Below, in pieces: positions 8,050-28,399 of a stretch of 64,000 nt of DNA. Where the stretch lies: positions 930,001 to 994,000 of the forward strand of contig NZ_CP031115.1 of assembly GCF_003568865.1 (NCBI RefSeq), in the 5' to 3' direction. This DNA is from Rubrobacter indicoceani (GTDB taxonomy: Bacteria > Actinomycetota > Rubrobacteria > Rubrobacterales > Rubrobacteraceae). A program made the position numbers and the translations under genes. How positions within the stretch are numbered: the first letter of the stretch is position 1; every line of letters begins with the position of its first letter. Below the pieces are notes generated by a model. It was not told where the DNA came from, ran no database searches, and saw only the letters and a program-made list of their open reading frames with translations.

Positions 8050-8080
8050 GGTAGTGAGCAGGGAAATCCCGCTCGCTACC
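8050..8080. terminator. Hairpin between convergent livF and trmB
   Basis: GGTAGTGAGC (8050-8059) pairs with GCTCGCTACC (8071-8080) through ten positions, one a G-T pair. The loop itself contains GGG-AAAT-CCC, which could lengthen the stem. No long T run follows on either strand. The right arm overlaps the trmB stop codon (8076-8078). It is probably a shared boundary element for the two convergent genes. Confidence 0.4.
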
Positions 8081-8750
8081 CACCGTTTTCGAGCAGAAAG
8101 CGTCTCACCGTCCTGCCGCGCTTCTCCCAGAGTTCCTGAAACCGCGACTTGACCGGGGGATCGAAGCCGACGAGATACGGCTCTTCGTGGACGCGCCGCC
8201 ACCGGGTTTGGCTCTCGATAAGCTCCAGCATCGCCGCGAAGTAGTCTTCGCTGTCGGTTACAAGGCTCATCCCGCCGCCCGGAACGACGGCCCGGTGCAT
8301 CTCATCAAGGAAGCGTCCGTCCATGATGCGCCGCTTTCTGTAGCGCTCCTTTATGCCGGGGTCGGGGAAGTGGAGGTAGACCTTCGAGACCGAATCCTCT
8401 ACAAAGAGCGGGTACATCTGCCGGAAGTCGCCGCGCACAAAGCGGATGTTATCGAGTTCGGCCTCGGAGGCGAGGCCGACCGCCCCGTAGAGCGACTTCA
8501 TGTGAAGGTCGAACCCGAGGAAGTTTTTCCCGGGCGAAGCCGTCGCAAGCGAGCACACGAACTCGCCCGTCCCGCACCCAACCTCTATCTCAAGCGGTTT
8601 TCCGTTGCCGAAAAGCGAGGTTGAATCAAGACCCGGCAGGGAGCCGGGGTCGTTGTGGAGGTCGAAGCCCGTCAGATGGAGAAGGTATCTCTCCCGGGTT
8701 TCCAAATCCGGCTCAGAAACGTTCAGGCGTCCGAGTTTTCTGCGGGTCAT
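8076..8750 (-). CDS. trmB: tRNA (guanine-N7-)-methyltransferase
   Basis: A 224-residue SAM-dependent enzyme making m7G46 in the tRNA variable loop. SAM motif I reads IEVGCGTGEF around residues 55-64. The TrmB signature YLHFPDPGIKERYRKRR and the downstream LVTDSEDYF are present, and the C-terminal FQELWEKRGRTV matches the family's substrate-binding end. The ATG at 8750 gives the normal family length. The open frame extends much further upstream but that part would run across the divergent riboswitch and has no recognisable content. Confidence 0.93.
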   Translation of the reverse strand: MTRRKLGRLNVSEPDLETRERYLLHLTGFDLHNDPGSLPGLDSTSLFGNGKPLEIEVGCGTGEFVCSLATASPGKNFLGFDLHMKSLYGAVGLASEAELDNIRFVRGDFRQMYPLFVEDSVSKVYLHFPDPGIKERYRKRRIMDGRFLDEMHRAVVPGGGMSLVTDSEDYFAAMLELIESQTRWRRVHEEPYLVGFDPPVKSRFQELWEKRGRTVRRFLLENGG

Positions 8751-8851
8751 GGAAGAAGAAGGTACCACCCCGAAGCCCCGGCGACACGCCCGGCGCGGCT
8801 CCGGGAGACGGTGGTCCACGGATCGAGACCTGCCCCGGTCAGGCGCAGCGT

Positions 8852-8881
8852 TTGACCCCGGCGGCCCGGGTGGTCTAAGAT
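8852..8881 (+). promoter_or_regulatory. Putative promoter of the cobalamin operon
   Basis: TTGACC at 8852-8857 and TAAGAT at 8876-8881 with an 18-base spacer. The predicted transcript start near 8888 falls just before the first conserved element of the cobalamin riboswitch, which fits well. Confidence 0.55.
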
Positions 8882-8887
8882 AGCGTC

Positions 8888-9065
8888 CTGAAAACGGGGT
8901 GTCGGCGTCAGGAAGCTGGTTGGAGTCCAGCACGGTCCCGCCACTGTAACCGGGGAGCGAACCTCCACAGCGTGCCACTGTCTGCAAAGCGGGGCGGGAA
9001 GGCCGGGGGTTGGCCCTGATCCGGGAGTCAGGATACTGAGACGACCCCACGACATATCCGACCGG
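8888..9065 (+). promoter_or_regulatory. Cobalamin (adenosylcobalamin) riboswitch
   Basis: Conserved blocks appear in the canonical order: GGAAGCTGGTTGGAGTCCAG, GGTCCCGCCACTGTAACCGG, GCCACTGTCTGC, GGGAAGGCCGGGG, then the B12-box-like TCCGGGAGTCAGGATACTG. The element lies between the promoter and cbtB. No hairpin with a T run is visible before the ATG. A CCTCC at 8962-8966 could in principle pair with the cbtB ribosome site GGAGG (9083-9087), so control is probably at translation initiation; that mechanism is inference. It probably turns down cobalt uptake and cobalamin synthesis when B12 is plentiful. Confidence 0.93.
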
Positions 9066-9093
9066 GGCGAGGATCCCGAAAAGGAGGCGCAGG

Positions 9094-9315
9094 ATGCAGA
9101 AGGCTACGCAAGGCAACGTCGGGCGTTTCGGCGAGGCAAGGATTCCGGCGTGGGGCTGGTTTTTGCCTGGCATCGTTCTGCTTATCGTCTTCGCGGTTCT
9201 CTACGACAACGGCGCGCTTCTCGCCCCGCTTGTCGGGGAGAGCGCCTACGCGAACAACTATCTCCACGAGGTTTTCCACGACGGGCGACACCTGCTCGGC
9301 GTCCCCTGCCACTAG
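9094..9315 (+). CDS. cbtB: CbtB, cobalt transporter subunit
   Basis: A 73-residue protein with one membrane span (LPGIVLLIVFAVLYDNGALL) and the conserved C-terminal metal-binding end HEVFHDGRHLLGVPCH, characteristic of CbtB. CbtAB are predicted cobalt transporters usually found under B12 riboswitches. The ATG follows AAGGAGG by six bases. It is the first gene after the riboswitch, and cbtA follows after 18 bases. Confidence 0.87.
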   Translation: MQKATQGNVGRFGEARIPAWGWFLPGIVLLIVFAVLYDNGALLAPLVGESAYANNYLHEVFHDGRHLLGVPCH

Positions 9316-9333: not shown

Positions 9334-10032
9334 TTGTTTTTCACCTACCTGCGTCGCGGCGTGCTTGCGGGGCTTGTCGCGGGCCTCATAGCCGGGCTTT
9401 TCGCCTACTCAGTCGGCGAGCCCGCAATAGAACGCGCCCTGCTTCTGGAAGAGGGGGCCAGCGAGCCCGACGGGGTCGTGAGCCGCGACCGGCAGGAGAT
9501 CGGCCTCATCGTTGCGACGGTGCTCTACGCCGGGGCGATGGGTGGGGTCTTCGCGGTGGTCTTCTCGTGGCTCCGGGGTCGGGGAGCCGCCTCCGACTGG
9601 TCGAGAAGCCTCGGGCTGGCGTCCGTGCTTTTCTCCGGGTTCTTTTTCATTCCGTTTGTCAAGTACCCTTCCGAGCCGCCGGGGACCGGCGATATGGAGA
9701 CGCTCGGCCTCCGCACGGCGGCGTACCTTCTGTGTCTGGTGATCTCCCTGTTCTCGCTGCTCGGGGCGTGGTATCTGGCCCGGTTTCTGCGGGGCCGGGG
9801 TTACACCGCCCCCGTGCGACAGGTCGTTGTGGGGGGCGCGCTGGTCGGGGTGCTAGGCGTCCTGTTCGCGCTGCTGCCGCCCGCAACGGCGGTCGGGGAC
9901 TTCCCGGGTGATGTGCTGTGGAGCTTCCGGGTCTCGACGGTCGGGACGCAGGTTCTGATCTGGGGGATGACGGGGGTGATCTTCGGCCTTCTCGGAGAGC
10001 GCGCCGCGAGAAAGGAACGGCGCGCGCTTTGA
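9334..10032 (+). CDS. cbtA: CbtA, cobalt transporter membrane subunit
   Basis: A 232-residue polytopic protein, typical of CbtA, with about five to six predicted spans. It begins FFTYLRRGVLAGLVAGLIAG, followed by an acidic loop (EPAIERALLLEE), a family hallmark. The TTG start has GGAGA upstream. With CbtB it probably supplies cobalt to the chelatases encoded downstream. Its stop overlaps the next start (TTGA). Confidence 0.87.
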   Translation: MFFTYLRRGVLAGLVAGLIAGLFAYSVGEPAIERALLLEEGASEPDGVVSRDRQEIGLIVATVLYAGAMGGVFAVVFSWLRGRGAASDWSRSLGLASVLFSGFFFIPFVKYPSEPPGTGDMETLGLRTAAYLLCLVISLFSLLGAWYLARFLRGRGYTAPVRQVVVGGALVGVLGVLFALLPPATAVGDFPGDVLWSFRVSTVGTQVLIWGMTGVIFGLLGERAARKERRAL

Positions 10033-13000
10033 CCGGCTCCCCGAAGGGATCACTCCTTGTCTGCGGAACCCACTCCGACGCCGGGAAGAGCGTCGTAGTC
10101 GCCGGGCTTTGCCGCTGGCTCTCGAACGAGGGCGTGAAGGTGGCGCCGTTCAAGGCGCAGAACATGGCCCTCAACTCGTTTGTCACCCTCGACGGGGCCG
10201 AGATCGGCCGCGCCCAGGCGGCCCAGGCGCAGGCCGCCCGCGTAGAACCCGAAGCCGCCATGAACCCGGTGCTGCTGAAGGCGAGCGCGGGCAACAGAAC
10301 GCAGGTCGTGGTGATGGGGAAGCCGCACTCGGAGGCAACGGCGAGAAGCTATCAGGAGACGAAGCGCGCCCTGATGCCCGTTGTGCTCGAAGCGTTCGGG
10401 AGCCTGAAATCCCGGTACGAAGTCGTTATCTGCGAGGGAGCCGGGAGCCCGGCGGAGATCAACCTGCGCAAAAACGACCTGGCGAACCTGGGGCTCGCCC
10501 GCGCGGCAGACGTCCCGACCATCCTTGTCGGGGATATAGACCGGGGCGGCCTCTTCGCCTCGCTCTACGGGACGCTCGCGCTGCTCTCCGAGGGGGACCA
10601 GGCGATGATAAAAGCCTTTGTCGTGAACAAGTTTCGCGGCGATCCGAGGGTTCTGGAACCGGGCCTCGATACGCTCACGCGCCTGAGCGGAAGACCGTTT
10701 CTCGGGACGCTCCCGTTTGCGGGCGGCCTTGAGCTCGACGGTGAGGATTCGATGTCGCTGGACAAAACCCGCGAGACGAAACCGCCGCTCGGACGGGACG
10801 TCCTGAAGGTCGCGGTCGCGCGGTTCCCGCGCATAAGCAACTTCACCGACCTCGACGCGCTCGCCCACGAGCCGGGGGTTGAGGTGCGCTTCACCCGCTC
10901 GGCGACCGAGCTTCTTTCGGCCGACCTCGCGGTGCTGCCCGGCACGAAGGCCACCGTGGAGGACCTTGCGTGGATGAGGGCTCGGGGGATGGACTCCGCC
11001 GTGCAGGAGCGAAAAAAGCGCAGCCTGCCTACGCTCGGCGTCTGCGGCGGATACCAGATGCTCGGCCGGCGCATAACCGACGAAGTGGAGAGCGTCTGTG
11101 GCGAGGTGCAGGGGCTCGGGCTGCTCCCAGTCGAGACGGTCTTCAAGCGGGAGAAAGTCCTTGCGCGTCCCTCCGGTGCGGCCCCGGCGTTCGGCGGGGA
11201 GCGGGTGCTTGGGTATGAGATCCGGCACGGCAGGGTCCGGGCGGAGAGCGGAACGCCGCTTATAACCGGCGAGGGCTTCGAGGAGGGTCGCGTCGCGGAG
11301 AGCGTCTACGGGACTTCGTGGCACGGGGTGATGGAATCGGACGGCTTCCGGCAAGCGTTCCTCGGGATGGTCGCGGAAAGCCGCGGCCTTGACTGGAGGC
11401 CGGGCGGGGAGCTGTTCTCCTCGGCGCGGGAGAGTCGGTTCGAGCGGATCGCAGACCTTGTAGCGCAAAACCTCGACCGCGATGCGCTGCTCGCCATCAT
11501 CGAGGGGCGGGGCTACAGCGAGTTCGTCCCGCTCGCCCCGCCGGGGATGCCGGACGAAACGCCGGAGGGCGGGGCTCCGGTATCTCCGTTGCTTGCCGGA
11601 CCCGAAAACCCCACCGCCGGGCGGGCCGAAGACGTCGAGGCCGCCGACCGAAACCGGCGTTCGGCGTCAGAGGGCAACGGGAACAAAGCAGAAGAAGCCC
11701 GTGAAAACGTCGAGGCCGGAGATCGAAAGGCAGAAGACTTGAACGGACCGAAAAACAGACCGGACGCCGGACACGTACTCTTTTTTACGACGGCGGATAC
11801 GGAGGTTCTCGCCGCCTCGAAGGCCGCGGGCTCCCTGCCCGACGGGTTTCCGGTCGTTCTGTGCGCAAACCCCGTCGCGCTGGAGGAGCCGCAGCGTGAA
11901 CTGCCAAAGCTCCTCGACGGGGCCAGGCTTGCGCTGGTGCGCCTGCTCGGCGGTCGGAAGGCGTGGCCCGAAGGTCTCGACCTTCTGCGCCGCGAGTGCG
12001 AGGGACGCGGTATACCCCTCCTCGCCTTCGGCGGCGAGGCCGAGCCCGACGCGGAACTCACCGCCCTCTCGACCGCCCCGGCGGGCGTCGTCGCAACCGC
12101 TTTCGAGTACCTCCGGCACGGCGGCGTACGGAACACCGGGAACCTCCTGCGCTTCGTCGCGGATACGCTTCTAGTGGAGGGATACGGGTTTGATCCACCG
12201 GCGGAACTGCCGGACTTCGGCATTTACCACCCCCGCTTTGCAACCCCGGGCATAGAGGAACTGGTTGCCGACCACGACCGGCACAGACCGACGGTCGGGA
12301 TAGTTTTCTACCGGGCGCACTGGATGGCGGGCAACACGGATTTCATAGACGCGCTCGTGCGGGAGGTCGAGGCCGCCGGGGCTAACACGCTGCCCGTCTT
12401 TGCGTACTCCCTGCGCGCCGAGCCGGACGGAAAGGTTCCGGCTCTGGAGCTTCTCGCCGGGCGAGCGGATTGTCTTGTAACGACCGTGCTCGCGAGCGGC
12501 GGGTCGAACGCCTCCGACGCCGCAGACCACGGCGGGCCGGAGGGCTGGCTTGAGTGGGAGGTCCCGGCCCTTAAAGAGCTTGGCGTCCCGGTGATACAGG
12601 GCATCTGCACGACCTCGACGCGGGGGGCGTGGCTTGACTCCGACGCGGGGCTCTCGCCGCTCGACACGGCCTGGCAGGTGGCGATACCGGAGTTCGACGG
12701 GCGCATAATCTCCGTACCGTTCTCGTTCAAGGAGACCGTTGCGGACGATTCACCCGTAGGCGCGCCGCTCACGGTCTACCGCGCGGACCCGGAGCGAACC
12801 GCCCGCGTCGCCGGGCTTGCAGCCCGGTTCGCCCGGCTCGGAAAGAAACCGAACCGGGAAAAGCGGATCGCCGTCATGCTCTCGAACTACCCGACAAAGC
12901 ACTCGCGGGTCGGGAACGCTGTCGGGCTGGACACGCCCCGGAGCGCGGTTCTGCTCCTCGACGCCCTGCGCGGGGCCGGATACCGGGTGGACGACGCGCC

Positions 13001-15503
13001 CGACGACGGCGATGAACTCATCCACTCGCTTATCGCCGCCGGGGGCCACGACCTTGAGTTCCTGACCGAAGAGCAACTTCGCGGCGCGACCGGAAGGGTC
13101 GATCCCGAACGCTACGCCGGGTGGTTCTCCGGGCTGCCGGGGGATCTGCAGAGCAGCGTCAAGCGGCAGTGGGGCGAGCCGCCGGGCGAGTTGTATCTGG
13201 ACGAGGACGAGCTTGTCGTGGCGGGGCTGCGCTTCGGGAACGTCTTTGTCGGGATACAGCCGCCGAGGGGTTTCGGGGAGAACCCCATCGCCATCTACCA
13301 CGACCCGGAGCTGGCCCCGACGCACCACTACCTGGCGGCGTACTGGTGGTTGATAGAGGAGTTCGGGGCCGACGCGGTCGTTCACCTCGGGAAGCACGGA
13401 ACGCTCGAATGGCTGCCGGGGAAATCGCTCGGGCTGTCGGCTTCGTGCGCGCCGGACGCCGCGATCCGGGACGTGCCGTTCTTCTACCCGTTTGTCGTCA
13501 ACGACCCCGGCGAGGGAACTCAGGCCAAGCGTCGGGCGCACGCGACGGTCGTTGACCATCTCATCCCGCCGATGACCCGGGCCGAGACCTACAACGATCT
13601 CGCCCGCCTGGAGCAGCTCCTGGACGAGTACTACCAGGTCGAGACCCTCGACCCGTCGAAGCTCCCGGCAATAGAAAAACAGGTCTGGGAGTGCATGCAG
13701 GGGGCCGACCTCGACAAGGACCTCGGCGTGGATGAGAAACCGGAGGAGTTCGGGGACTTTATCGGCGAGGTGGACGGTTATCTGTGTGAGATCAAAGACC
13801 TCCCCATCCGGGGCGGCCTCCACGTTCTCGGCGAAGCCCCGTCCGGCGAGGCGTTCCGCCACCTGACCGCCGCCATCCTCCGCCTCGGCGCGGGCGATGT
13901 TCCCGGCCTGCGGCGCGCCGTGGCCGCCGCCTGTGGTCTCGACGAAAAGCGGCTGACCGAGGACGGCGGAGCACGAATGGAAGCCCCGCCGGAGCTCGCG
14001 AGACGCTTCGGAAGAGGCAAGGTGGCGGTGACCGCCTCGGACGTTCTGGACCTTCTGGAGCTGGCGCAGCAGGCTCTGCTCGCCGCCCTCGAAGAACGCG
14101 GCTGGGACGCAGGTTCCGCCGAATCCGTCTGCCGGGAGACGCTCGGTTTCACAGACGCGGGCGTCGTAGCGTCGCTCCGGTTCTGCGCTGAGGAGGTCGT
14201 GCCGAGGCTTCTTCGGACGCCGGACGAGATGGGGAACCTTCTCGGCGGGCTTGCGGGGGGATACGTTCCGGCGGGCCCGTCCGGCTCCCCGACGCGTGGC
14301 CTCGTGAACGTGCTGCCGACGGGCCGGAACTTCTACTCCGTGGACCCGAAGGCGCTGCCCTCGCGGCTTGCGTGGCCCGTCGGGCGGTCGCTGGCTGAGA
14401 ACCTGCTCGCGCGCCACCTCGACGAGGAGGACCGGTACCCGGAGACCGTCGGCATCGTGGTCTGGGGGACGGCGGCGATGCGGACGCAGGGCGACGACAT
14501 CGCGGAGGTGCTGGCCCTGCTCGGGGTGAGGCCTGTGTGGAACGAGGAGTCGCTGCGGGTAACCGGGCTGGAGGTTGTTTCGCTGGAGGAGCTTGGACGG
14601 CCCCGGATAGACGTTACCGTCAGGATCAGCGGCTTTTTCCGGGACGCTTTTCCGAACCTGATCTCCCTCATGGACGAAGCCTTCCGAACCGTCGCCGCCC
14701 TCGACGAACCGCCCGGGATGAACTTCGTAAAGAAACACGCCGAACAGGAGACCGCCGAAGGCGCGACCGACCGCGAAGCCACGACGCGCATCTTCGGCTC
14801 CAAGCCGGGGGCCTACGGCGCGGGGCTTCTGCCGCTTATAGACGCGAGAAACTGGCGCGACGACAACGATCTGGCCGAGGTCTACGCCGTCTGGGGCGGC
14901 TACGCCTACGGCAAGGGGCTCGAGGGGCGTGAAGCGAGAAAGGAGCTGGAGGCGAACTTGAGGCGCACCGAGGTCGCGGTCAAGAACATAGACAACCGCG
15001 AGCACGACCTCTTTGACTCCGACGACTACTTCCAGTATCACGGGGGTATGATCGCCGCCGTCCGCGCCCTCACCGGACGCAACCCGAAGTCCTACATCGG
15101 GGACTCCGCCGACCCGGCGAGCGTGAAGACCCGTGACCTGTCCGAGGAGGCCAGGCGGGTCTTCCGCTCGCGCGTTGCGAACCCGAAGTGGATCAAAGCG
15201 ATGCAGAACCACGGTTACAAGGGGGCTTTCGAGCTTTCCGCGACGGTTGACTACCTCTTCGGCTACGATGCGACCGCGAACGTCGTGGAAGGTTGGATGT
15301 ACCGCGATATAACCGAGAAATACGTTCTCGATGAGGAGGTTCGCGAGTTCATGCAGAGGTCAAACCCCTGGGCGTTGCGGGCGATAAGCGAGCGGCTGCT
15401 GGAGGCCGCCGAGCGCGGCCTCTGGCAGAACCCGGAGAACCTCGAGGCGCTGAAGGCGGTTTATCTGGAGAACGAAGGAGTACTGGAGGAGACCACGCAA
15501 TGA
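10029..15503 (+). CDS. cobQ-cobN: Fused cobyric acid synthase (CobQ) and cobaltochelatase large subunit (CobN)
   Basis: One uninterrupted 1824-codon frame encodes two normally separate enzymes. Residues 1 to about 500 are CobQ, which amidates adenosylcobyrinic a,c-diamide to cobyric acid: ATP site GTHSDAGKS (13-21), PFKAQNMALNS, glutaminase nucleophile in LGVCGGYQMLG (Cys339) and SWHGV (His432). Residues about 505-585 are a low-complexity Glu/Arg/Pro/Gly linker. The rest is full-length CobN, the large subunit of the ATP-dependent cobaltochelatase, with HGTLEWLPGK near residue 1123 and GTAAMRTQGDDIAE. The TTG start overlaps the cbtA stop. An in-frame TTG at 11739 with GAAAGG upstream could also start CobN alone (1254 residues, the normal length). 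Confidence 0.9.
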   Translation: MTGSPKGSLLVCGTHSDAGKSVVVAGLCRWLSNEGVKVAPFKAQNMALNSFVTLDGAEIGRAQAAQAQAARVEPEAAMNPVLLKASAGNRTQVVVMGKPHSEATARSYQETKRALMPVVLEAFGSLKSRYEVVICEGAGSPAEINLRKNDLANLGLARAADVPTILVGDIDRGGLFASLYGTLALLSEGDQAMIKAFVVNKFRGDPRVLEPGLDTLTRLSGRPFLGTLPFAGGLELDGEDSMSLDKTRETKPPLGRDVLKVAVARFPRISNFTDLDALAHEPGVEVRFTRSATELLSADLAVLPGTKATVEDLAWMRARGMDSAVQERKKRSLPTLGVCGGYQMLGRRITDEVESVCGEVQGLGLLPVETVFKREKVLARPSGAAPAFGGERVLGYEIRHGRVRAESGTPLITGEGFEEGRVAESVYGTSWHGVMESDGFRQAFLGMVAESRGLDWRPGGELFSSARESRFERIADLVAQNLDRDALLAIIEGRGYSEFVPLAPPGMPDETPEGGAPVSPLLAGPENPTAGRAEDVEAADRNRRSASEGNGNKAEEARENVEAGDRKAEDLNGPKNRPDAGHVLFFTTADTEVLAASKAAGSLPDGFPVVLCANPVALEEPQRELPKLLDGARLALVRLLGGRKAWPEGLDLLRRECEGRGIPLLAFGGEAEPDAELTALSTAPAGVVATAFEYLRHGGVRNTGNLLRFVADTLLVEGYGFDPPAELPDFGIYHPRFATPGIEELVADHDRHRPTVGIVFYRAHWMAGNTDFIDALVREVEAAGANTLPVFAYSLRAEPDGKVPALELLAGRADCLVTTVLASGGSNASDAADHGGPEGWLEWEVPALKELGVPVIQGICTTSTRGAWLDSDAGLSPLDTAWQVAIPEFDGRIISVPFSFKETVADDSPVGAPLTVYRADPERTARVAGLAARFARLGKKPNREKRIAVMLSNYPTKHSRVGNAVGLDTPRSAVLLLDALRGAGYRVDDAPDDGDELIHSLIAAGGHDLEFLTEEQLRGATGRVDPERYAGWFSGLPGDLQSSVKRQWGEPPGELYLDEDELVVAGLRFGNVFVGIQPPRGFGENPIAIYHDPELAPTHHYLAAYWWLIEEFGADAVVHLGKHGTLEWLPGKSLGLSASCAPDAAIRDVPFFYPFVVNDPGEGTQAKRRAHATVVDHLIPPMTRAETYNDLARLEQLLDEYYQVETLDPSKLPAIEKQVWECMQGADLDKDLGVDEKPEEFGDFIGEVDGYLCEIKDLPIRGGLHVLGEAPSGEAFRHLTAAILRLGAGDVPGLRRAVAAACGLDEKRLTEDGGARMEAPPELARRFGRGKVAVTASDVLDLLELAQQALLAALEERGWDAGSAESVCRETLGFTDAGVVASLRFCAEEVVPRLLRTPDEMGNLLGGLAGGYVPAGPSGSPTRGLVNVLPTGRNFYSVDPKALPSRLAWPVGRSLAENLLARHLDEEDRYPETVGIVVWGTAAMRTQGDDIAEVLALLGVRPVWNEESLRVTGLEVVSLEELGRPRIDVTVRISGFFRDAFPNLISLMDEAFRTVAALDEPPGMNFVKKHAEQETAEGATDREATTRIFGSKPGAYGAGLLPLIDARNWRDDNDLAEVYAVWGGYAYGKGLEGREARKELEANLRRTEVAVKNIDNREHDLFDSDDYFQYHGGMIAAVRALTGRNPKSYIGDSADPASVKTRDLSEEARRVFRSRVANPKWIKAMQNHGYKGAFELSATVDYLFGYDATANVVEGWMYRDITEKYVLDEEVREFMQRSNPWALRAISERLLEAAERGLWQNPENLEALKAVYLENEGVLEETTQ

Positions 15504-15755: not shown

Positions 15756-17696
15756 GTGAGCGTCGGGTATCCTTTCTCCGCGATAGTCGGGCAGGACGAG
15801 CTGAAGCTCGCCCTTCTTCTGAACGCCGTATCGCCGGAGATCGGCGGGGTTCTCGTGCGTGGCGAGAAGGGCACGGCCAAGTCAACCGCGGTGCGCGCTC
15901 TGGCGAGCCTTCTTCCGCAGATAGAAGCCGTCGCGGGGTGCCCGTATTCCTGCGACCCGGAGGACCCGAACCCGGAATGCCCCGCAGGGCCGCATCTCGA
16001 AGGCGCGCCGACGGAGAACCGCCCGGTCCGGCTCGTAGAGCTTCCGGTCGGGGCGTCGTCTGACCGACTGACCGGGACGCTCGACCTTGAAAAAGCGCTT
16101 ACGAAAGGCGAACGCAGCTTCGAGCCGGGGCTGCTCGCGGCGGCTCACCGGGGGATTCTCTACGTGGACGAGGTAAACCTTTTGTCCGATCACCTCGTGG
16201 ACCTTCTGCTCGACGTGGCTGCGATGGGGGTGAACCGCGTCGAGGCCGAAGGGGTGAGCGTCTCGCACCCGGCGCGGTTCCTGCTCGTCGGGACGATGAA
16301 CCCCGAGGAGGGCGAACTGAGGCCGCAGCTTCTAGACCGCTTCGGGCTCTCGGTGGAGGTCTCCGGGACGCCTGAAGTCGAAGAACGCGCCGAGGTCGTG
16401 CGGCGGCGGCTCCGCTACGAGGCCGACCGGGAAGACTTCGCCGCCGGGTGGCGCGAGGCCGACGGGGAGTTCTCCGCAAAGGTGATGAAGGCCGGACGGA
16501 AACTCCCGAACGTCTCGCTGGCCGAGGAGCGGCTGATGGACGTATCGGCGGTCTGCGCTGCGCTCGGGGTGGACGGGCTGCGCGGCGACATCGTAACCGC
16601 GAAGGCCGCGCTCGCGCTCGCCGCCTGGGAAGGACGAGGCGCGGTCGAGCGCGAGAACGTAAAGCGTGCAGCGCTTCTTGCCCTGGCGCATCGCAGGCGG
16701 CGAAATCCCTTTGACGAGCCGGGCGTAACGCCGGAAGAGATCGAGTCCGCCCTCCCCGAGGAGCCGCCGGATCATGATCCCCCGAGCGACCCCGACAGAC
16801 CGGACGGCGAAGCCGAGGGCGAGGCTCCGGCCCCCGGCGAGCCGGACGCGACGGTGGGCGGCGGAGAGCGGAGCTTCGCCCCGGCGCCGTCCGGGGTGGA
16901 CCTGTCCCGGTTCTCGGGGGAGGTGCGCGGCGCGGGTGGGCCGGCGGGGCGCAGAAGCCGGTCGGTCGGGGAGCGGGGCGTCTCCGTCGGGTCGCGGCCG
17001 GTGAAGCGGGGTGAGAGGGATATCTCCGTTGCGGCCACGCTCCGGGCGGCGGCCCCGTTTCAGGCCGGGCGGGGCCGGGCCGGGGCCGGGCCGGTGCTGC
17101 GGGCTTCGGATCTCCGGTCGAATGTTCGCGAGGGAAGGGAGGGAAACCTCGTTGTCTTCTGCGTAGACGCGAGCGGTTCGATGGCGGCGAGGTCGAGGAT
17201 GAGCGCGGTCAAGGGCGCGGTGCTGGAGCTTCTCTCGGAGGCGTACCGCAAGCGCGACAGGGTCTCGCTGATCTCCTTCCGGGGGGCCGGGGCCGAGCTG
17301 CTTCTGCCCCCGACCTCGAGCGTGGAGCTTGCGACCCGCCGCCTTTCGGAGCTCCCGACGGGCGGCAGGACGCCCATCGCCTCCGGCCTCGAAAAGGCCC
17401 TGGAGGTTATCCTGCGTGAGGGTCGGCGGGACCCGTCGAGGGCGCCGCTTTTGGTTTTCCTGACCGACGGACGCGCCACCGACGGACGCCCGACGGACGA
17501 CGTCGCGGCGAGGTTCCACCGGGCCGGGGTAACATCGGTCGTTGTGGACACGGAGTCAGGGAACGTGCGGCTCGGGCTGGCGCGGGGGCTTGCGGAGGCG
17601 CTGGGCGGCGGTTACGTGAGGTTCGATGAGGTTTCGGCCGACGCGCTGGTCGGGACGGTCGGAGGGGCGAGGAACACGGGAAGGGGTGCGGCGTGA
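15756..17696 (+). CDS. Chelatase ChlI-ChlD fusion (AAA+ and vWA), partner of CobN
   Basis: A 646-residue protein uniting the ATPase and integrin-like subunits of a Mg/Co-chelatase. Residues 1-330 are the AAA+ part: Walker A GEKGTAKS (36-43), a Cys-rich loop GCPYSCDPEDPNPECP, and Walker B-like ILYVDEVNLL. A Pro/Asp-rich linker follows, then a vWA domain with MIDAS motif DASGSM (about residue 470) and LTDGRATDGRP. Next to cobN this is most likely the ATP-driven subunit of a cobaltochelatase, in place of CobS/CobT. No chlorophyll genes are near. The GTG start at 15756 has a weak GGGGGG ribosome site. Confidence 0.9.
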   Translation: MSVGYPFSAIVGQDELKLALLLNAVSPEIGGVLVRGEKGTAKSTAVRALASLLPQIEAVAGCPYSCDPEDPNPECPAGPHLEGAPTENRPVRLVELPVGASSDRLTGTLDLEKALTKGERSFEPGLLAAAHRGILYVDEVNLLSDHLVDLLLDVAAMGVNRVEAEGVSVSHPARFLLVGTMNPEEGELRPQLLDRFGLSVEVSGTPEVEERAEVVRRRLRYEADREDFAAGWREADGEFSAKVMKAGRKLPNVSLAEERLMDVSAVCAALGVDGLRGDIVTAKAALALAAWEGRGAVERENVKRAALLALAHRRRRNPFDEPGVTPEEIESALPEEPPDHDPPSDPDRPDGEAEGEAPAPGEPDATVGGGERSFAPAPSGVDLSRFSGEVRGAGGPAGRRSRSVGERGVSVGSRPVKRGERDISVAATLRAAAPFQAGRGRAGAGPVLRASDLRSNVREGREGNLVVFCVDASGSMAARSRMSAVKGAVLELLSEAYRKRDRVSLISFRGAGAELLLPPTSSVELATRRLSELPTGGRTPIASGLEKALEVILREGRRDPSRAPLLVFLTDGRATDGRPTDDVAARFHRAGVTSVVVDTESGNVRLGLARGLAEALGGGYVRFDEVSADALVGTVGGARNTGRGAA

Positions 17697-18283
17697 GCGA
17701 AAGACCGGAGAGCGGTGGTTTGCGGCAGTCAAGGGAGGAGCGCCTTAGAAAGCGTTCCCGGCGCGAGAGGCCGATGCTGATAGTGAACACCGGCAAGGGA
17801 AAGGGGAAGTCAACGGCCTCGTTCGGGGTGATGCTCCGGGGCTGGGCGCGGGGATACAGGATCGGGGTCTATCAGTTCGTAAAGAGCGGGAAGTGGAACG
17901 TCGGGGAACAGAAGGCCGCCGAGGCCCTCGGTAACATAGACTGGTTTAAGATGGGCGACGGCTGGACGTGGACAGTGAAGGACCTGGAAGTCTCCGAAGA
18001 CCTTGCCCGCGAGGGCTGGGAGGAGGTCAAGCGACGCATTTTGGACGAGACGTACGACATGCTTCTTCTCGACGAGTTCACTTACCCGTTGAAGTGGGGC
18101 TGGATCGATACGGAGGAGGTCGTGGAGTTTCTAAAGAACCGGCCCGGCTTTCAGCACGTCATCATCTCCGGGCGGGACGCCCCACAGAAGCTTGTCGAGG
18201 CGGCGGATCTCGTCAGCGAGATCCACAAGATAAAGCACCCGATGGACGAGGGCTTCAAGGGCCAGAAGGGGATAGAGTGGTAG
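17693..18283 (+). CDS. cobO: Cob(I)yrinic acid a,c-diamide adenosyltransferase (CobO/BtuR type)
   Basis: A 196-residue enzyme that transfers the adenosyl group of ATP to Co(I) corrinoid. The P-loop NTGKGKGKST is at residues 32-41, followed by RGWARGYRIGVYQFVKSG and the family motif LLLDEFTYPLKWGWI. It ends GFKGQKGIEW, as is usual for BtuR. The GTG start overlaps the previous stop (GTGA). Confidence 0.95.
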   Translation: MSERPESGGLRQSREERLRKRSRRERPMLIVNTGKGKGKSTASFGVMLRGWARGYRIGVYQFVKSGKWNVGEQKAAEALGNIDWFKMGDGWTWTVKDLEVSEDLAREGWEEVKRRILDETYDMLLLDEFTYPLKWGWIDTEEVVEFLKNRPGFQHVIISGRDAPQKLVEAADLVSEIHKIKHPMDEGFKGQKGIEW

Positions 18284-18284
18284 C

Positions 18285-19670
18285 TTGACGGATCGCTTCT
18301 ACACCCCGAGGCTGGTCGTCGCCGGAACGCACTCCGGGGCGGGCAAGACAACCGTGGCGACCGGCCTGATGGCAGCGTTCTCCGGGCGGGGCAAAGCGGT
18401 TGCGCCGTTCAAGGTCGGGCCGGACTTTATAGACCCGTCGTATCATGCCCTTGCAACCGGGCGACCGGGGCGCAACCTCGATGCTTTTCTTTTCGGTGAG
18501 GACCTTGTCGCGCCGCTTTTCCTGCACGGCTCCGGGGGGGCGGAGATCTCCGTGATAGAGGGGGTCATGGGCCTTTTCGACGGTCGGAGCGGGGCCGGGG
18601 ACTTCGCCTCGACGGCACACGTCGCGAAGCTTCTCGGCGCGCCCGTCGTGCTGGTCGTGGATGCTTCGGCGATGGCGGGTTCGGTGGCGGCGATGGTCTA
18701 CGGCTACGCGACCTTCGATGCGGAGGTCAACGTGGCGGGCGTCGTTCTGAACCGCGTAGGGTCGGATCGGCACGAGGCGATGCTCCGCCGGGCGGTGGAG
18801 CCGCTCGGAATCCCGGTTGTCGGGGTGCTGCGACGCGACGCGGGGATCGAAACGCCGGACCGGCACCTCGGCCTCATCCCGGTCGCGGAGCGCAGGGACG
18901 AGGCGCGACGGGCCGTTGAGCGGCTGGGGGAGGTGGTCTCCGCCTCCTGCAGCCTGAACTCTATAGAACGACTCGCTGCCGACGCGGAGCCGTTTTTGGG
19001 CGAAGCGTGGAAGCCGGAGGCGGACGAGGCGGTCGCGGGCGAGGCCGGGGTGCGCGTCGCGGTGGCGACCGGACCGGCGTTCAGCTTTCTCTACCGGGAG
19101 AACCTGGAGCTTATGCGCTCGGCCGGGGCCGAAGTATGTTTTTTCGATCCCACGACCGACGACCGGCTGCCCGCCGGTACGGACGCCCTCTACCTCGGCG
19201 GCGGCTTCCCGGAGGCTTACGCCAACGCGCTCTCGGAGAACACGGACCTGCGGGACGCAGTGCGGGTCTTCGCCGCTTCGGGGCGGCCCGTCGCCGCGGA
19301 GTGCGGCGGCCTGATGTACCTGACGCGCGACCTCGACGGGCGTCGGATGTGCGGTGTCGTTGGGGCTTCATCCCGGATGTCCGGTCGGCTGAAGCTCGGG
19401 TACCGGGAGGCGATAGCCGCCGCCGACTCGCCGCTTATGCGCGCCGGAGAGACCATAAACGGCCACGAATTCCACTACTCGGAGGTGGAGCCCGACGGGG
19501 CGGTAAAGGCGGCCTGGAGCTTCGACGACGGCCGGGGGGAGGGCTTTGTCTGCGGCCCGGAGGCCAACGTCCACGCAAGCTACCTCCACACCCACTGGGC
19601 GGCGGTCCCGCAGGTGGCGAGCCGGTTTGTGAGGGCCGCCGCATCCGCAAAGCGGGGGGTGAGGGCGTGA
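18285..19670 (+). CDS. cobB: Cobyrinic acid a,c-diamide synthase (CobB/CbiA)
   Basis: A 461-residue two-domain amidotransferase acting on side chains a and c of the corrin. The ATP-binding domain opens with AGTHSGAGKTTVATGLMAAF and FKVGPDFIDPSYH; the glutaminase domain carries its Cys in AAECGGLMYLT and a late His pair in YLHTHW. Length and order match CbiA/CobB. It starts at TTG one base after the cobO stop and ends in a GTGA overlap with cobI. In the cobalt-early route it acts on cob(II)yrinate; in the late route on hydrogenobyrinate; the sequence does not decide. Confidence 0.95.
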   Translation: MTDRFYTPRLVVAGTHSGAGKTTVATGLMAAFSGRGKAVAPFKVGPDFIDPSYHALATGRPGRNLDAFLFGEDLVAPLFLHGSGGAEISVIEGVMGLFDGRSGAGDFASTAHVAKLLGAPVVLVVDASAMAGSVAAMVYGYATFDAEVNVAGVVLNRVGSDRHEAMLRRAVEPLGIPVVGVLRRDAGIETPDRHLGLIPVAERRDEARRAVERLGEVVSASCSLNSIERLAADAEPFLGEAWKPEADEAVAGEAGVRVAVATGPAFSFLYRENLELMRSAGAEVCFFDPTTDDRLPAGTDALYLGGGFPEAYANALSENTDLRDAVRVFAASGRPVAAECGGLMYLTRDLDGRRMCGVVGASSRMSGRLKLGYREAIAAADSPLMRAGETINGHEFHYSEVEPDGAVKAAWSFDDGRGEGFVCGPEANVHASYLHTHWAAVPQVASRFVRAAASAKRGVRA

Positions 19671-20398: not shown

Positions 20399-21203
20399 TC
20401 CGGCTGGAAAGGTCTGGTTTATCGGGGCGGGACCGGGGGCCGCAGACCTTATAACCGTGCGTGGGGCGAAGGCGATCTCGGAAGCAGACATCGTTGTCTG
20501 GGCGCGGAGCCTTGTAAGCGAGGAGATACTCGGCTACGCCTCGCCGGACGCCGAGGTCGTCGAGTCAACGGATATCCCGCTCGAAGGCACGGCCGCGGTC
20601 TACAGGCGGGCGGCGCGGGAGGGGCTCACGGTCGCCCGCATCCACTCCGGCGACCCGGCTATCTTCGGGGCGATCATGGAGCAGATAGAGCGCTGCGAAG
20701 ACCTCGAACTCGACTGGGAGGTCGTACCCGGCGTCTCGTCGTTCTCCGCCGCCGCCGCCGCCATCGGGCGCGAGCTGACCATCCCCGAGGTCTCGCAGTC
20801 CATTATCCTGACGCGCCGGGCGAGCCGCACCCCGATGCCGAGGGGCCAGGAGATAGAACGCTTCGCGGCCCACGGCACTACGATGGCCATCTTTCTCTCC
20901 GCCGCCCGTCCGCGGGAACTCCAGGAGGAACTCCTCTCCGGCGGTTATCCGCCGCACACGCCGTGCGCGGTGGTGTACCGGGCCACGTGGCCGGATCAGA
21001 AGATCTCCCGCTGCCGGCTGGAGGGGCTTGGGGATGCGATCCGCGAGATGGGGGTAAACCGGCAGGCCATGATCCTCATCGGGCCCGGCCTCGACGCTTA
21101 CGGCAGACGCTCGCGGCTCTACGACCCGGAGTTCTCCCACATGTTCCGCAGGGGTTCTTCCGAGTCCATCCGGGATATCACGGAGGGCATCGAGGCCCGG
21201 TGA
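20388..21203 (+). CDS. cobM: Precorrin-4 / cobalt-precorrin-4 C11-methyltransferase
   Basis: A 271-residue SAM-dependent methylase of the CobM/CbiF group: FIGAGPGAADLITVRGAKAI at the start, RIHSGDPAIFGAIMEQ, VVPGVSSFSAAAAAIGRELT, and LTRRASRTPMPRGQE, which is characteristic of C11 enzymes. The ATG at 20388 overlaps the cobI end by 11 bases. The frame upstream is a shadow of cobI. It ends in a GTGA overlap with cbiD. Confidence 0.94.
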   Translation: MANNPAGKVWFIGAGPGAADLITVRGAKAISEADIVVWARSLVSEEILGYASPDAEVVESTDIPLEGTAAVYRRAAREGLTVARIHSGDPAIFGAIMEQIERCEDLELDWEVVPGVSSFSAAAAAIGRELTIPEVSQSIILTRRASRTPMPRGQEIERFAAHGTTMAIFLSAARPRELQEELLSGGYPPHTPCAVVYRATWPDQKISRCRLEGLGDAIREMGVNRQAMILIGPGLDAYGRRSRLYDPEFSHMFRRGSSESIRDITEGIEAR

Positions 21204-22402
21204 CGGACCGCAACGACAGGAGGACGCACGAGCCGCCGATGCCGCCGAGCATGGCCCGGGTCGTGGGCGACCGGGAGAAACTGCGCACCGGCTGGACGAC
21301 CGGGGCCTGCGCCACCGCCGCCGCCAAAGCCGCCACCCTCGCCCTGACGACGGGCGAGATGCCAGAGGAGATCGAGATAAAACTCCCTGGTAAAAACGAA
21401 AGGCGGGTTACCTTTGTCCTTGAACGCTGCAGGCTCGCCCCGGACGGCTCCTGCGCCGAAGCGGTCGTTGTAAAGGACGCGGGCGACGACCCGGACGTTA
21501 CGGACGGCGCACACCTGACGGCCCGCGTCTCGTGGCGCGAGGAGCCGGGTCTGCTGCTCGAAAACGGCCCCGGCGTCGGACGGGTAACGCGCCCCGGCCT
21601 CGGCCTCACCGTCGGAGGCCCGGCGATAAACGCAACGCCGAGGGCCATGATCGAATCCTCCGTAACCGAGGTCCACGACCCCTCCGAACGCGGCCTCCTT
21701 GTAGAGATAAGCGTTCCCGGAGGCGAGCTCATGGCCGAGAAAACAACGAACGCCAGACTCGGCATCGTCGGCGGTATCTCCATCCTCGGGACCACCGGCA
21801 TCGTCCGACCCTTCTCGACCGCCGCCTGGGCCGCAAGCGTCGTTCAGGCCGTGAACGTCATGTCGGCGCAGAACATAGACACGTTCGTTCTGTCAACGGG
21901 CGGGTTAACGGAAAAGGCGGCGATGCGGCTTCTGCCGGAGCTGGAGGAAGTCTGTTTTATCGAGGTCGGGGATTTCACGGGGCAGGCCATCCGGCAGGCG
22001 GTCAAGAACGGGTTGCGGCGGGGGTTTTTCGTGGGGATGGCCGGGAAGCTCGCAAAGCTGGCCGCCGGGGTGATGATGACGCACTGGACCCGGTCGAAGG
22101 TGGACAACTCGGTGCTGGCTCGTATCACCCGCGAGGCCGGGGGTTCTGCGGGGGTGGTAGCCGAGGTCGAGGGGGCGAACACCGCGCGGCACGCATACGA
22201 GATATGGCTTCGCGAGGGCCTGAGCGAAGCTCCGAACATCCTCTGCGAGCGGGCGGCGGAGAACCTGCGGGCCCACGTAAAGTCAGGTTCCGGTGAAGAA
22301 TCGCTGGAGCTTCACGCCATCATCATAGACTTCGACACCCTGAAGCCGACCGGGGCGAGCGCGGGCGCGCTGGAGCAGACGGCCTGGCGGGGGCGTCCTT
22401 GA
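21200..22402 (+). CDS. cbiD: Cobalt-precorrin-5B C1-methyltransferase CbiD
   Basis: A 400-residue protein that methylates C1 in the cobalt-early pathway. Its diagnostic N-terminal motif is LRTGWTTGACATAAAKAA, and the central GGISILGTTGIVRPFS is also typical. The GTG at 21200 overlaps the cobM stop; about 30 poorly conserved residues precede the conserved start, so a later start (for example Met near MPPSMARVV) is possible. CbiD is a marker of the anaerobic-type route and replaces CobF. Confidence 0.94.
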   Translation: MTDRNDRRTHEPPMPPSMARVVGDREKLRTGWTTGACATAAAKAATLALTTGEMPEEIEIKLPGKNERRVTFVLERCRLAPDGSCAEAVVVKDAGDDPDVTDGAHLTARVSWREEPGLLLENGPGVGRVTRPGLGLTVGGPAINATPRAMIESSVTEVHDPSERGLLVEISVPGGELMAEKTTNARLGIVGGISILGTTGIVRPFSTAAWAASVVQAVNVMSAQNIDTFVLSTGGLTEKAAMRLLPELEEVCFIEVGDFTGQAIRQAVKNGLRRGFFVGMAGKLAKLAAGVMMTHWTRSKVDNSVLARITREAGGSAGVVAEVEGANTARHAYEIWLREGLSEAPNILCERAAENLRAHVKSGSGEESLELHAIIIDFDTLKPTGASAGALEQTAWRGRP

Positions 22403-23619
22403 CGCCGGAGAAGATAGTCGTTGTCGGGTTGAACGGGGGTGGGTTGGACCCTGAGCGGAAAAGGCTTATTGCCGGGGCTTCGCTTGTCGTCGGGGGCGAG
22501 CGGCATCTCGCGGCGGCGGGCGTGGAGGGGGAGCGTTCGGTGGTCTTGAAGGGCGATCTCTCGGGGGCGATGGAGCGGATACCGGAGGTCGACGGGCGGG
22601 TCGTGGTGCTCGCCTCAGGAGACCCCGGTTTCTTCGGGATAGTGCGCCTGCTCTCCGGGAGGTTCGGCTCGGAGCGGCTGGAGGTCCTGCCCGCGCCGTC
22701 TTCGGTCGCGCTCGCGTTCGGGCGGGCGGGGATGTCCTGGGAGGATGCGGTCGTGGTGAGCGTACACGGGGTCGAGTCGGAGCGGGGGCCGAGGCGGGCT
22801 GTAAACGTCTGCCGGGCGCACTCGAAGGTCTGCGTCCTGACGAGGCCGGGGTTCGGGCCGGGTGAGATCGCCTCCGAACTGCAGCACCTCGGGCTGCGGT
22901 TCGCCGTCGGGGAGCGGCTCGGGATGGAGGGGGAGAGGGTCTTTTTCGGGGATGCGGAGGAAGTCCTGAGCGAAACGTGGCGGGAGCCGAACGTCGTGAT
23001 CGTCTACGACCGGAACCGCCTGCCGGAGGGGAAGTCGTGGCTTTCGGGCGGAGCCCCGGGAAGCGGTGCGTGGGGGCTTTCTCTGGACGAGTTCGAGTAC
23101 CGGTCGGCCATGATCACCCGCCCCGAGCCCCGCTCCGTCGTTCTCTCGAAGCTCGGGCCGGGGGTCGGGGATCTCATCTGGGACGTGGGCGCGGGCAGCG
23201 GCTCCGTCGCCGTCGAGTGCGCTCGTTTCGGGGCCGCTGCGATAGCGGTCGAGCGCGACCGGGAATCCTGCGGAAACGTCCGCAAAAACGCCGCCCGGCA
23301 CGGCCTGCGGGTCGAGGTCGTGGAGGGTGAGGCTCCGGCGGCTCTGCACGGCCTCCCCGACCCGGATGCGGTCTTTATCGGTGGCACGGGCGGCGACTTC
23401 GAGGGGGTAGTGGAGTTCTGCGCAGGCCGGGCGATACGCTCGGTTGTCCTGACGCTTATCACGCTGGAGCGGGTCGTACCGGCGATGCGGCTGCTGGAGA
23501 GGTTTGGCTGCAGGGTCGAGGCCGTCCAGCACCAGACCTCGCACGTCCGGCCGATCGCAAAGATGCACCGCCTCGTGCCGGAGAGCCAGGTCTTTATCGT
23601 ATCCGGGACAAAGGGGTGA
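22399..23619 (+). CDS. cobL: Precorrin-6Y C5,15-methyltransferase, decarboxylating (CbiE-CbiT fusion)
   Basis: A 406-residue fusion. The N-terminal half (about 1-210) is the CbiE-type methylase (VVVLASGDPGFFGIVRLL, PAPSSVALAFGRAGMSWEDA). The C-terminal half is the CbiT-type Rossmann methyltransferase with SAM motif WDVGAGSGSVAVECAR and VEGEAPAAL. Together they methylate C5 and C15 and remove the ring C acetate carboxyl. The TTG start overlaps the cbiD stop (TTGA). Confidence 0.94.
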   Translation: MTPEKIVVVGLNGGGLDPERKRLIAGASLVVGGERHLAAAGVEGERSVVLKGDLSGAMERIPEVDGRVVVLASGDPGFFGIVRLLSGRFGSERLEVLPAPSSVALAFGRAGMSWEDAVVVSVHGVESERGPRRAVNVCRAHSKVCVLTRPGFGPGEIASELQHLGLRFAVGERLGMEGERVFFGDAEEVLSETWREPNVVIVYDRNRLPEGKSWLSGGAPGSGAWGLSLDEFEYRSAMITRPEPRSVVLSKLGPGVGDLIWDVGAGSGSVAVECARFGAAAIAVERDRESCGNVRKNAARHGLRVEVVEGEAPAALHGLPDPDAVFIGGTGGDFEGVVEFCAGRAIRSVVLTLITLERVVPAMRLLERFGCRVEAVQHQTSHVRPIAKMHRLVPESQVFIVSGTKG

Positions 23620-25319
23620 GCCGTATAAAGCGGGTAGCCCTGATCGCCGCCACCGAGAACGGACGCCGGAACGCCCGGCATCTGGCGAGCGTCTGGCCCG
23701 AGGCCGAGGTCTACGGCGGCCCGGTAAGGGAGGCGATGTGCCGGGCGTGGGACGAAGCCGACGGCATCGTTGCCTTTGTGGCGACCGGGGCGGCGGTTCG
23801 GCTGGCCGCGCCGCTGTTCTCGGACAAGCGAACGGACCCCGGCCTTGTCTGCGTGGACGACGCGGCCCGTTTCGCCGTCGCCCTCTCCGGGGGTCACGAA
23901 GGCGGGGCGAACGGCCTTGCGGAGCGGGTCGCGGCGGCGCTCGGGGCGACGCCCGTCGTTACGACCGCCTCGGACGTTACCGGGCATCCGGATCTTGATT
24001 TGTTCGGGGCGGACCTCGGGTTCCGGGCGGACGGGCGCTCGGAGGTCGCCGCCGTCGGGGCCGCGCTTGTCTCCGGCGGGGAGGTGCGTCTTGTCTCGGA
24101 GCGGCGCTGCCCCGTCGGGCCCCTCCCCGAAAACGTCGTCGCCGGGGAAGCCGCACCGGGCGTGCCGGCCATCATCATCTCGGACCGGACAGGGGATCTC
24201 CCGTCGCCTTCGGTGCTCTACCGACCGGCCTCGCTCGTGGTCGGGGTCGGGTGCAGCCGGGGGGCCTCGGCGGGGGAGATCGTCGCCCTCGTGCGCGAGT
24301 CACTCAGGGAAGCCGGGCTCTCCGAAGCGTCGGTCGCCGCCTTTGCGAGCGTGGACGTGAAGCGCGACGAGGCCGGGCTGCTCACCGCCGCCGGGGAGTT
24401 CGGGGTCCCGGTGCGGTTCTTCCCGGCGGCGGAACTCTCCGGCTTCGAAGCGCCGAACCCGTCGGAGGTGGTGCGCGGGGCCGTGGGTACGCCGAGCGTC
24501 GCGGAGGCTTCGGTGCTCGCGAGCGGCGCGGAGCTTGTCCTTGAAAAGCGGAAGTCCGGGATGGCGACGTGCGCCGTCGGGCGGCTGCCGGTGCGCGGGC
24601 GGCTGTACCTCGTGGGCCTCGGGCCGGGGGACGAGTCGCTCGTTCCGCCAATGGCCCGTGAGGCGCTTGCAAAGTCGGAGGTCGTGGTCGGTCTGAAGCA
24701 GTACGTGGACCGCATCCGGCACCTGCTCCGCCCCGGGACCCGGACCGTCGAGCCGCCGCTCGGGCGCGAGGTCGAACGGGCGGAGATCGCCGTCGAGGAG
24801 GCCCGAAAGGGCGGCTCGGTCGCGCTTGTCAGCAGCGGCGACATCGGGGTGTACGCGATGGCCTCACCCGCGCTCGAGGTCGCCGGAGAGGAGGTGGAGG
24901 TCGTAACCGTGCCGGGGGTAACGGCCTCGGGCGCGGCGGCGGCGCTGCTCGGCTCCCCGCTCGGGCACGACCACTGCTCCATCAGCCTCTCCGACCTCCT
25001 GACCCCCTGGTCCGTTATAGAGAACCGTCTCGAAGCCGCCGCCGCCGGGGATTTCGTTGTCTCCTTCTACAACCCGCGCTCGAAAGGCCGCGACTGGCAG
25101 CTCCGGAAAGCCATAGAGATCCTCTTATCCTGTCGCTCCCCAGAGACCCCTGCAGGTCTTGTCCGGGACGCCTACCGTCCGACGCAGAGAGTCCACCTGA
25201 CGACCCTCGGGGGGCTCAGGCCCGAAGACGTGGACATGCTCACGGTCGTCGTTGTCGGGAGCTCGCAGACGATGCTCCGGGCCGGACGGATGGTAACGCC
25301 GAGGGGGTATCCGCTGTGA
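23616..25319 (+). CDS. cbiG-cobJ: CbiG-CobJ (CbiH) fusion: cobalt-precorrin-5A hydrolase and C17-methyltransferase
   Basis: A 567-residue fusion. Residues 1 to about 320 are CbiG, which opens the delta-lactone of cobalt-precorrin-5A: DGIVAFVATGAAVRLAAPLF, VALSGGHEGGANGLAERVA and SLVVGVGCSRGAS are family motifs. From about 325 a CobJ/CbiH methylase follows (GRLYLVGLGPGDESLVPPMA, SSGDIGVYAMASPALEV, DFVVSFYNPRSKGRDWQL), which methylates C17 with ring contraction. CbiG presence indicates the cobalt-early route. The GTG start overlaps the cobL stop. Such fusions are known. Confidence 0.94.
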   Translation: MSRIKRVALIAATENGRRNARHLASVWPEAEVYGGPVREAMCRAWDEADGIVAFVATGAAVRLAAPLFSDKRTDPGLVCVDDAARFAVALSGGHEGGANGLAERVAAALGATPVVTTASDVTGHPDLDLFGADLGFRADGRSEVAAVGAALVSGGEVRLVSERRCPVGPLPENVVAGEAAPGVPAIIISDRTGDLPSPSVLYRPASLVVGVGCSRGASAGEIVALVRESLREAGLSEASVAAFASVDVKRDEAGLLTAAGEFGVPVRFFPAAELSGFEAPNPSEVVRGAVGTPSVAEASVLASGAELVLEKRKSGMATCAVGRLPVRGRLYLVGLGPGDESLVPPMAREALAKSEVVVGLKQYVDRIRHLLRPGTRTVEPPLGREVERAEIAVEEARKGGSVALVSSGDIGVYAMASPALEVAGEEVEVVTVPGVTASGAAAALLGSPLGHDHCSISLSDLLTPWSVIENRLEAAAAGDFVVSFYNPRSKGRDWQLRKAIEILLSCRSPETPAGLVRDAYRPTQRVHLTTLGGLRPEDVDMLTVVVVGSSQTMLRAGRMVTPRGYPL

Positions 25320-25534
25320 AGGCCCGGAAACCGCTGCGGCGAACCTCGACCTTTGTTGTGACGGACGCCTGCGCCGGTTGCGGGGCGTGCATCCCGACCT
25401 GTCCCGAACGGGCGTTCCTGCCGGGCAGGACCGACGGACGGGTGCCGCTCGTGATCCTCGAAGACCGCTGCTCGGGCTGCGCCGAGTGCGCCGAAATCTG
25501 TCCCGTCGCGGCGATAATCGAGGTGCGGAGATGA
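25316..25534 (+). CDS. Small ferredoxin with two [4Fe-4S] clusters
   Basis: A 72-residue protein with two complete CxxCxxCxxxCP motifs: CAGCGACIPTCP and CSGCAECAEICP. The GTG start overlaps the cbiG-cobJ stop, and its stop overlaps the cobH start, so it is embedded in the methylase series. It probably delivers low-potential electrons to a reductive step in this pathway: cobalt reduction before adenosylation, precorrin-6A reduction, or support of CbiX or CobJ. The sequence does not say which. Confidence 0.92.
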   Translation: MKARKPLRRTSTFVVTDACAGCGACIPTCPERAFLPGRTDGRVPLVILEDRCSGCAECAEICPVAAIIEVRR

Positions 25535-27313: not shown

Positions 27314-27325
27314 AAAGGAAGGCTG

Positions 27326-28390: not shown

Positions 28391-28399
28391 GGATATGGG

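What the first reader, a model, noticed from the sequence alone, without database searches (positions are those of the whole stretch)
10029..15503. Single-frame fusion of cobyric acid synthase (CobQ) to cobaltochelatase subunit CobN
The sequence shows one open frame of 1824 codons holding complete CobQ and complete CobN joined by a low-complexity linker of about 80 residues. These enzymes act at different, non-consecutive steps and I know them as separate proteins. An in-frame TTG at 11739 with GAAAGG just upstream could also make CobN alone, so both a fusion and a separate CobN may be produced. The fusion could channel intermediates or place the chelatase beside a late amidation step.
Basis: partly seen in the sequence, partly recalled or inferred. 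Interest (0 to 1): 0.78.

Follow-up and report, generated by a model that had tools for sequence, protein, structure and literature searches.

The report
Lone CobQ-CobN fusion by stop loss
Two neighbouring vitamin B12 genes, which normally overlap slightly and are read separately, run on as one long gene in this single bacterial genome, most likely because a small insertion or deletion removed the stop signal between them; it is a small evolutionary curiosity, not a new kind of enzyme.

Summary
In detail: 10029-15503 (+) is one open frame of 1824 codons with a complete CobQ (res 8-491) and a complete CobN (res 582-1816), each the genome's only copy. Comparison explains how it arose. In 43 relatives whose junction I read (23 Rubrobacteraceae, 20 other Actinomycetota), cobQ and cobN are adjacent but separate, usually overlapping by a few bases in different frames; none is fused. 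The window keeps that ancestral signature. TTG 11739, at CobN's expected start, overlaps a TGA (TTGA) in the +1 frame, and that frame is open from 11464. A net one-base frame change in the fast-evolving CobQ tail therefore suffices to turn two coupled genes into one. Both halves evolve at normal rates and keep their active-site residues. CobN's old start site, weak Shine-Dalgarno and low local structure remain, so free CobN is probably still made. One rival is a sequencing indel: the same 64 kb holds another one-base frameshift at a G6 run. But only that one appeared in 339 compared genes, so a real fusion is favoured. Nothing supports channelling. I found no report or other example of this pairing.

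The parts
8909..9038 (+). cobalamin riboswitch (RF00174) heading the operon
   Evidence: 80.9 bits against gathering 31.5
9094..9315 (+). small ORF, 73 aa, CbtB-like by position and by its HEVFHDGRH histidine motif (inference)
   Evidence: identity inferred, no family search run
9334..10032 (+). cbtA, probable cobalt transporter subunit; its stop TGA overlaps the cobQ start (TTGA at 10029)
10029..15503 (+). fused cobQ::cobN open frame, 1824 codons
10050..11501 (+). CobQ part (residues 8-491), P-loop K, GATase Cys339 and His432 intact
11514..11753 (+). 80-residue E/A/P/G-rich linker; corresponds to the hypervariable CobQ C-terminal tail of relatives; contains a 26-nt imperfect repeat 75 nt apart (11628, 11703)
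11464..11742 (+). +1 frame, open for 92 codons and ending in TGA 11740-11742; the probable former reading frame of the end of the CobQ tail, at least in its last part
11739..11742 (+). TTGA: probable ancestral stop/start overlap; TTG is the likely CobN start, AAAGG 8 nt upstream, local structure among the most open 3% of coding windows
11772..15476 (+). CobN part (residues 582-1816)
15756..17696 (+). ChlI-ChlD type chelatase ATPase subunit (TIGR02442, just under cut-off)
17693..18283 (+). cobO adenosyltransferase; GTGA overlap with the previous gene
18285..19670 (+). cobB a,c-diamide synthase

Best explanation
In the ancestor, as in most relatives, cobQ and cobN were adjacent riboswitch-controlled genes with an overlapping stop and start. 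In this lineage a net one-base frame change in the disposable, fast-changing C-terminal tail of cobQ put cobQ in the frame of cobN, so ribosomes no longer meet the TGA at 11740 and make a CobQ-linker-CobN protein of about 197 kDa. CobN's own start (TTG 11739, with a weak Shine-Dalgarno) is still there, so some free CobN (about 137 kDa) is probably made too. Each half works as its separate homologue does: CobQ as cobyric acid synthase, CobN as the large cobaltochelatase subunit docking on the ChlID-type ATPase. Shown: the open frame, complete domains, separate genes in relatives, the retained TTGA, normal evolutionary rates. Inferred: the mutation, translation products, enzyme activities, near-neutrality.
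For: Complete CobQ and CobN domains in one frame. 23 of 23 family junctions read and 20 of 20 in other Actinomycetota are unfused, mostly overlapping by about 1-40 nt; the nearest relative G001 has ATGA. The window keeps TTGA at the expected CobN start, the same overlap type as other junctions of this operon: 10029 TTGA, 17693 GTGA, 22399 TTGA, 23616 GTGA. The +1 frame is open 11464-11739. The tail is hypervariable: 9-82 aa and unalignable between relatives. Branch lengths are normal: CobQ 0.199 against 0.186 in G001, CobN 0.104 against 0.139, and active-site residues are invariant. Indels near gene 3' ends are expected to be mutations rather than errors (PMC3711429).
Against: Only one genome shows it. 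Codon statistics favour the fused frame in the first half of the linker but are near-neutral over 11631-11738 (+7 nats over 36 codons, about half to a fifth of what normal coding gives), so neither an old fusion nor a last-minute indel is demonstrated. TTGA alone is a weak signature: 19 of 71 in-frame NTG codons are followed by A, and 5 also have a long open +1 frame. The Shine-Dalgarno of TTG 11739 is not distinctive: 31 of 70 in-frame NTGs have one as strong. A nearby frameshift in the same window leaves room for assembly error.
Confidence: 0.7

Rival explanations
1. Sequencing or assembly artefact: a one-base indel error in the linker joins two genes that are separate and overlapping (TTGA) in the real genome.
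For: No relative is fused; either alternative frame ends at or before CobN's start (TGA 11740, TGA 11702); codon signal near the end of the linker is ambiguous; the same window has a one-base frameshift at a G6 run at about 39323 in a gene that is whole in G001.
Against: Among 339 confident orthologues (about 334 kb of coding alignment) only that one clear frameshift was found, so under 0.001 errors are expected in a 225-base linker. No homopolymer longer than 4 lies in the linker upstream of TTG 11739. The region is where real indels are most tolerated. The fused frame scores best over the linker as a whole.
Confidence: 0.2
2. An adaptive bifunctional enzyme: fusion fixes CobQ and CobN stoichiometry or channels intermediates between cobalt insertion and amidation.
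For: The linker is in frame, long, acidic and free of stops, and holds an in-register 75-nt imperfect repeat; both halves are conserved; the partners sit in one operon with the intervening enzymes CobO and CobB.
Against: Unique to one genome among all surveyed. The reactions are not consecutive (adenosylation by CobO lies between; established pathway knowledge). The acidic tail has no conserved counterpart. CobN must still dock with an oligomeric ATPase ring. CobN's own start is retained.
Confidence: 0.1

Closest known systems
Overlapping cobQ-cobN gene pair of Rubrobacteraceae and other Actinomycetota (e.g. G001 L004:3114, ATGA)
   Same: Gene order, both full-length enzymes, stop/start overlap at the CobN start
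   Different: There CobQ ends at the overlap, in another frame than CobN; in the window CobQ is in CobN's frame and reads through
Known cobalamin-pathway fusions: CbiE-CbiT, CbiG-CbiH (both in this same operon), CobB-CobC (NCBIfam NF053748)
   Same: In-frame joining of neighbouring pathway enzymes
   Different: Those recur in many lineages (own knowledge); CobQ-CobN was found only here, and its enzymes are not consecutive
CobN of solved structures 7c6o and 9uk9; ChlH 4zhj
   Same: CobN part aligns over almost its whole length
   Different: No CobQ part
ChlI-ChlD fused chelatase ATPase genes and programmed frameshifting in chlD (PMC3711429, PMC9227772)
   Same: Chelatase subunits whose fused or separate state varies by reading-frame changes
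   Different: Different subunits; no plus-strand slippery AAAAAAG site lies at the CobQ-CobN junction

Membership tests
Cobyric acid synthase CobQ | Full-length match to NF001989/TIGR00313 above curated cut-off | tested here: met
   583.5 against 273 bits and 456.7 against 309.9 bits
Cobyric acid synthase CobQ | P-loop and GATase Cys/His conserved | tested here: met
   GTHSDAGKS, Cys339, His432, invariant in 24 aligned sequences
Cobyric acid synthase CobQ | Amidation of adenosylcobyrinic acid a,c-diamide at b, d, e and g | not testable with these tools
   needs enzyme assay
Cobaltochelatase subunit CobN | Full-length match to TIGR02257 above cut-off and above the BchH model | tested here: met
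   1218 against 822 bits; BchH 804.7 is below its cut-off 829
Cobaltochelatase subunit CobN | Partner ATPase subunit(s) encoded nearby | tested here: met
   ChlID-type gene 15756-17696, TIGR02442 757.5 bits, slightly under cut-off 779
Cobaltochelatase subunit CobN | Cobalt insertion into hydrogenobyrinic acid a,c-diamide | not testable with these tools
   substrate uncertain because CbiX/CbiD/CbiG genes are also present
Established (recurrent) fusion family CobQ-CobN | Same fusion in at least one other lineage | tested here: not met
   0 of 43 junctions read; no other single-frame match listed in 396 phylum and 299 class genomes, though the listing was truncated
Overlapping, translationally coupled gene pair | Stop of the first gene overlaps the start of the second | tested here: not met
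   TTGA is present but the TGA is not in the CobQ frame

The most novel reading that the evidence does not exclude
A genuine, expressed bifunctional CobQ-CobN protein, unknown elsewhere, made alongside free CobN from an internal start, in which tethering affects assembly or flux of the late cobalamin steps.
Probability: 0.1. Interest if true: 0.55.

Novelty: new variant of a known kind. Interest (0 to 1): 0.3.

Why it matters
If real, it is a clean snapshot of how an overlapping, translationally coupled gene pair becomes a fused gene by a single frame change, with the sister genus member still in the overlapping state and the old start site still visible. It would give a natural tethered CobN for chelatase assembly studies. 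It also warns that a new 'fusion' in one genome should be compared with the junctions of relatives before a function is proposed.

Tried and rejected
Possible fusions in G029 and G035, suggested by equal open_frame values, were rejected after reading the DNA: several stops lie between the genes. The Spirosoma plasmid hit H1, which covered 95% of the query, is separate genes in another order. Most frameshift candidates in the G000/G001 survey were antisense ORFs or gene boundaries. Literature searches found no CobQ-CobN fusion. A programmed-frameshift idea was dropped: no plus-strand slippery AAAAAAG at the junction. Only one scan of genome contigs and none of metagenome contigs was allowed, so no second strain of the species could be examined.

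Full report
OBSERVATION. Window 10029-15503 (+) is a single open frame of 1824 codons. Residues 8-491 are a full-length cobyric acid synthase and residues 582-1816 a full-length cobaltochelatase CobN by curated models well above cut-off (Pfam agrees). The genome (3.08 Mb in 3 contigs, 99.99% complete) has no second copy of either. CobQ keeps its P-loop lysine, GATase Cys339 and His432, all invariant among 24 aligned sequences.

CONTEXT. The frame lies in a cobalamin operon behind a cobalamin riboswitch at 8909-9038. The order is a small CbtB-like ORF, cbtA, cobQ::cobN, ChlID-type ATPase, cobO, cobB, then (after a stretch with two open frames not assigned here) cbiD, cbiET, cbiGH, cobH/cbiC, cbiX-like, cobT, cobS, and a cobD/cobC-like aminotransferase. 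Several junctions are NTGA overlaps: 10029 TTGA, 17693 GTGA, 22399 TTGA, 23616 GTGA. Fusions of neighbouring enzymes (CbiET, CbiGH) already occur in this operon.

RELATIVES. In the nearest held genome (G001, same genus; about 74% identity for CobQ and 83% for CobN) the genes are separate and overlap as ATGA. I read 23 Rubrobacteraceae junctions besides the window. In 18 of them cobQ and cobN overlap, with stop and start sharing bases or crossing by a few codons. In 5 a further stretch of about 490 nt separates them. None is fused. Twenty more distant Actinomycetota junctions are also unfused and mostly overlap. In samples of 396 phylum genomes (158 with a match) and 299 class genomes (34 with a match) no other genome gave a single-frame match across both parts; the phylum listing was truncated, so a weak fused case could have been missed. 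The CobQ tail between the two conserved parts is hypervariable: 9-82 residues in the family, with no alignable sequence.

ORIGIN. In the window, TTG 11739 sits where CobN should begin, 13 codons before the conserved LFFTTAD block at residue 584, and overlaps TGA 11740-11742 in the +1 frame, which is open from 11464. This is the ancestral overlap with CobQ displaced from its stop. A net one-base frame change somewhere in the tail is sufficient. Codon likelihoods favour the fused frame for 11514-11631 and are nearly neutral for 11631-11738, so a change late in the tail is the most natural place. TTGA on its own is not rare (19 of 71 in-frame NTGs); the argument rests on its position plus the comparative pattern.

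REAL OR ERROR. To judge assembly quality I compared 800 kb of this genome with 800 kb of G001. Among 339 confident orthologues (about 111,000 aligned residues) one clear frameshift was found, in the window itself at a G6 run near 39323, in a TMEM260-like gene that is whole in G001. The implied error rate makes an error in this 225-base linker improbable (below 0.001 expected), while real indels in this tail are evidently common. A published survey of frame transitions notes that frameshifts near gene 3' ends are more likely mutations than errors (PMC3711429). I put the fusion being real at about 0.8, but only reads can settle it.

CONSEQUENCE. Both halves evolve at ordinary rates (window against G001, distance to common node: CobQ 0.199 against 0.186, CobN 0.104 against 0.139), so neither has decayed. 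TTG 11739 has AAAGG 8 nt upstream and lies in one of the least structured 60-nt windows of the gene (MFE -10.4, top 3%). The Shine-Dalgarno by itself is not distinctive (31 of 70 in-frame NTGs are as strong), so internal initiation is plausible but unproven. The expected products are a 197 kDa fusion and a 137 kDa CobN.

FUNCTION. From established pathway knowledge CobN inserts cobalt into hydrogenobyrinic acid a,c-diamide with an oligomeric ATPase (CobNST: PMC10206600), CobO adenosylates, and CobQ makes four amidations. The fused activities are therefore not consecutive and no evidence supports channelling. The presence of CbiX-, CbiD- and CbiG-type genes in the same operon leaves even the physiological substrate of CobN open.

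VERDICT. A real-looking, lineage-specific gene fusion by loss of a reading-frame boundary between overlapping operon neighbours. It is a new combination of known enzymes with a mundane origin, of modest interest unless shown to be expressed and functionally distinct.

Noticed in passing
window 38521-40298 (+), break near 39323: TMEM260-like (PF11028) membrane-protein gene split by a one-base frameshift at a G6 run; the gene is whole (551 aa) in the nearest relative G001. Pseudogene or sequencing error.
   Followed up: partly
window 20963-31256 (+): The operon mixes an early-cobalt-insertion set (CbiX-like, CbiD, CbiG) with a late-insertion set (CobN and ChlID-type ATPase), leaving the role of CobN unclear.
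   Followed up: no
L043, L044, L052, L053, L062 between cobQ and cobN: Five relatives have about 490 extra bases between cobQ and cobN; in L008/L044 and L013/L062 these look like an additional small membrane-protein gene in another frame.
   Followed up: no
L007, L009, L010 cobQ tails: CobQ tails of several relatives are built from short repeats (TCAGC-like, GAAGCCTGATG-like), as if repeat insertions drive the length variation of the tail.
   Followed up: no
genomes G002, G018, G025, G026, G027: Near-complete family members without any strong CobQ or CobN match, suggesting loss of the pathway in parts of the family.
   Followed up: no
window 8076-9173 (-) and 8909-9038 (+): The called TrmB-like ORF on the minus strand overlaps the plus-strand riboswitch; its real start is probably well inside the ORF.
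   Followed up: no
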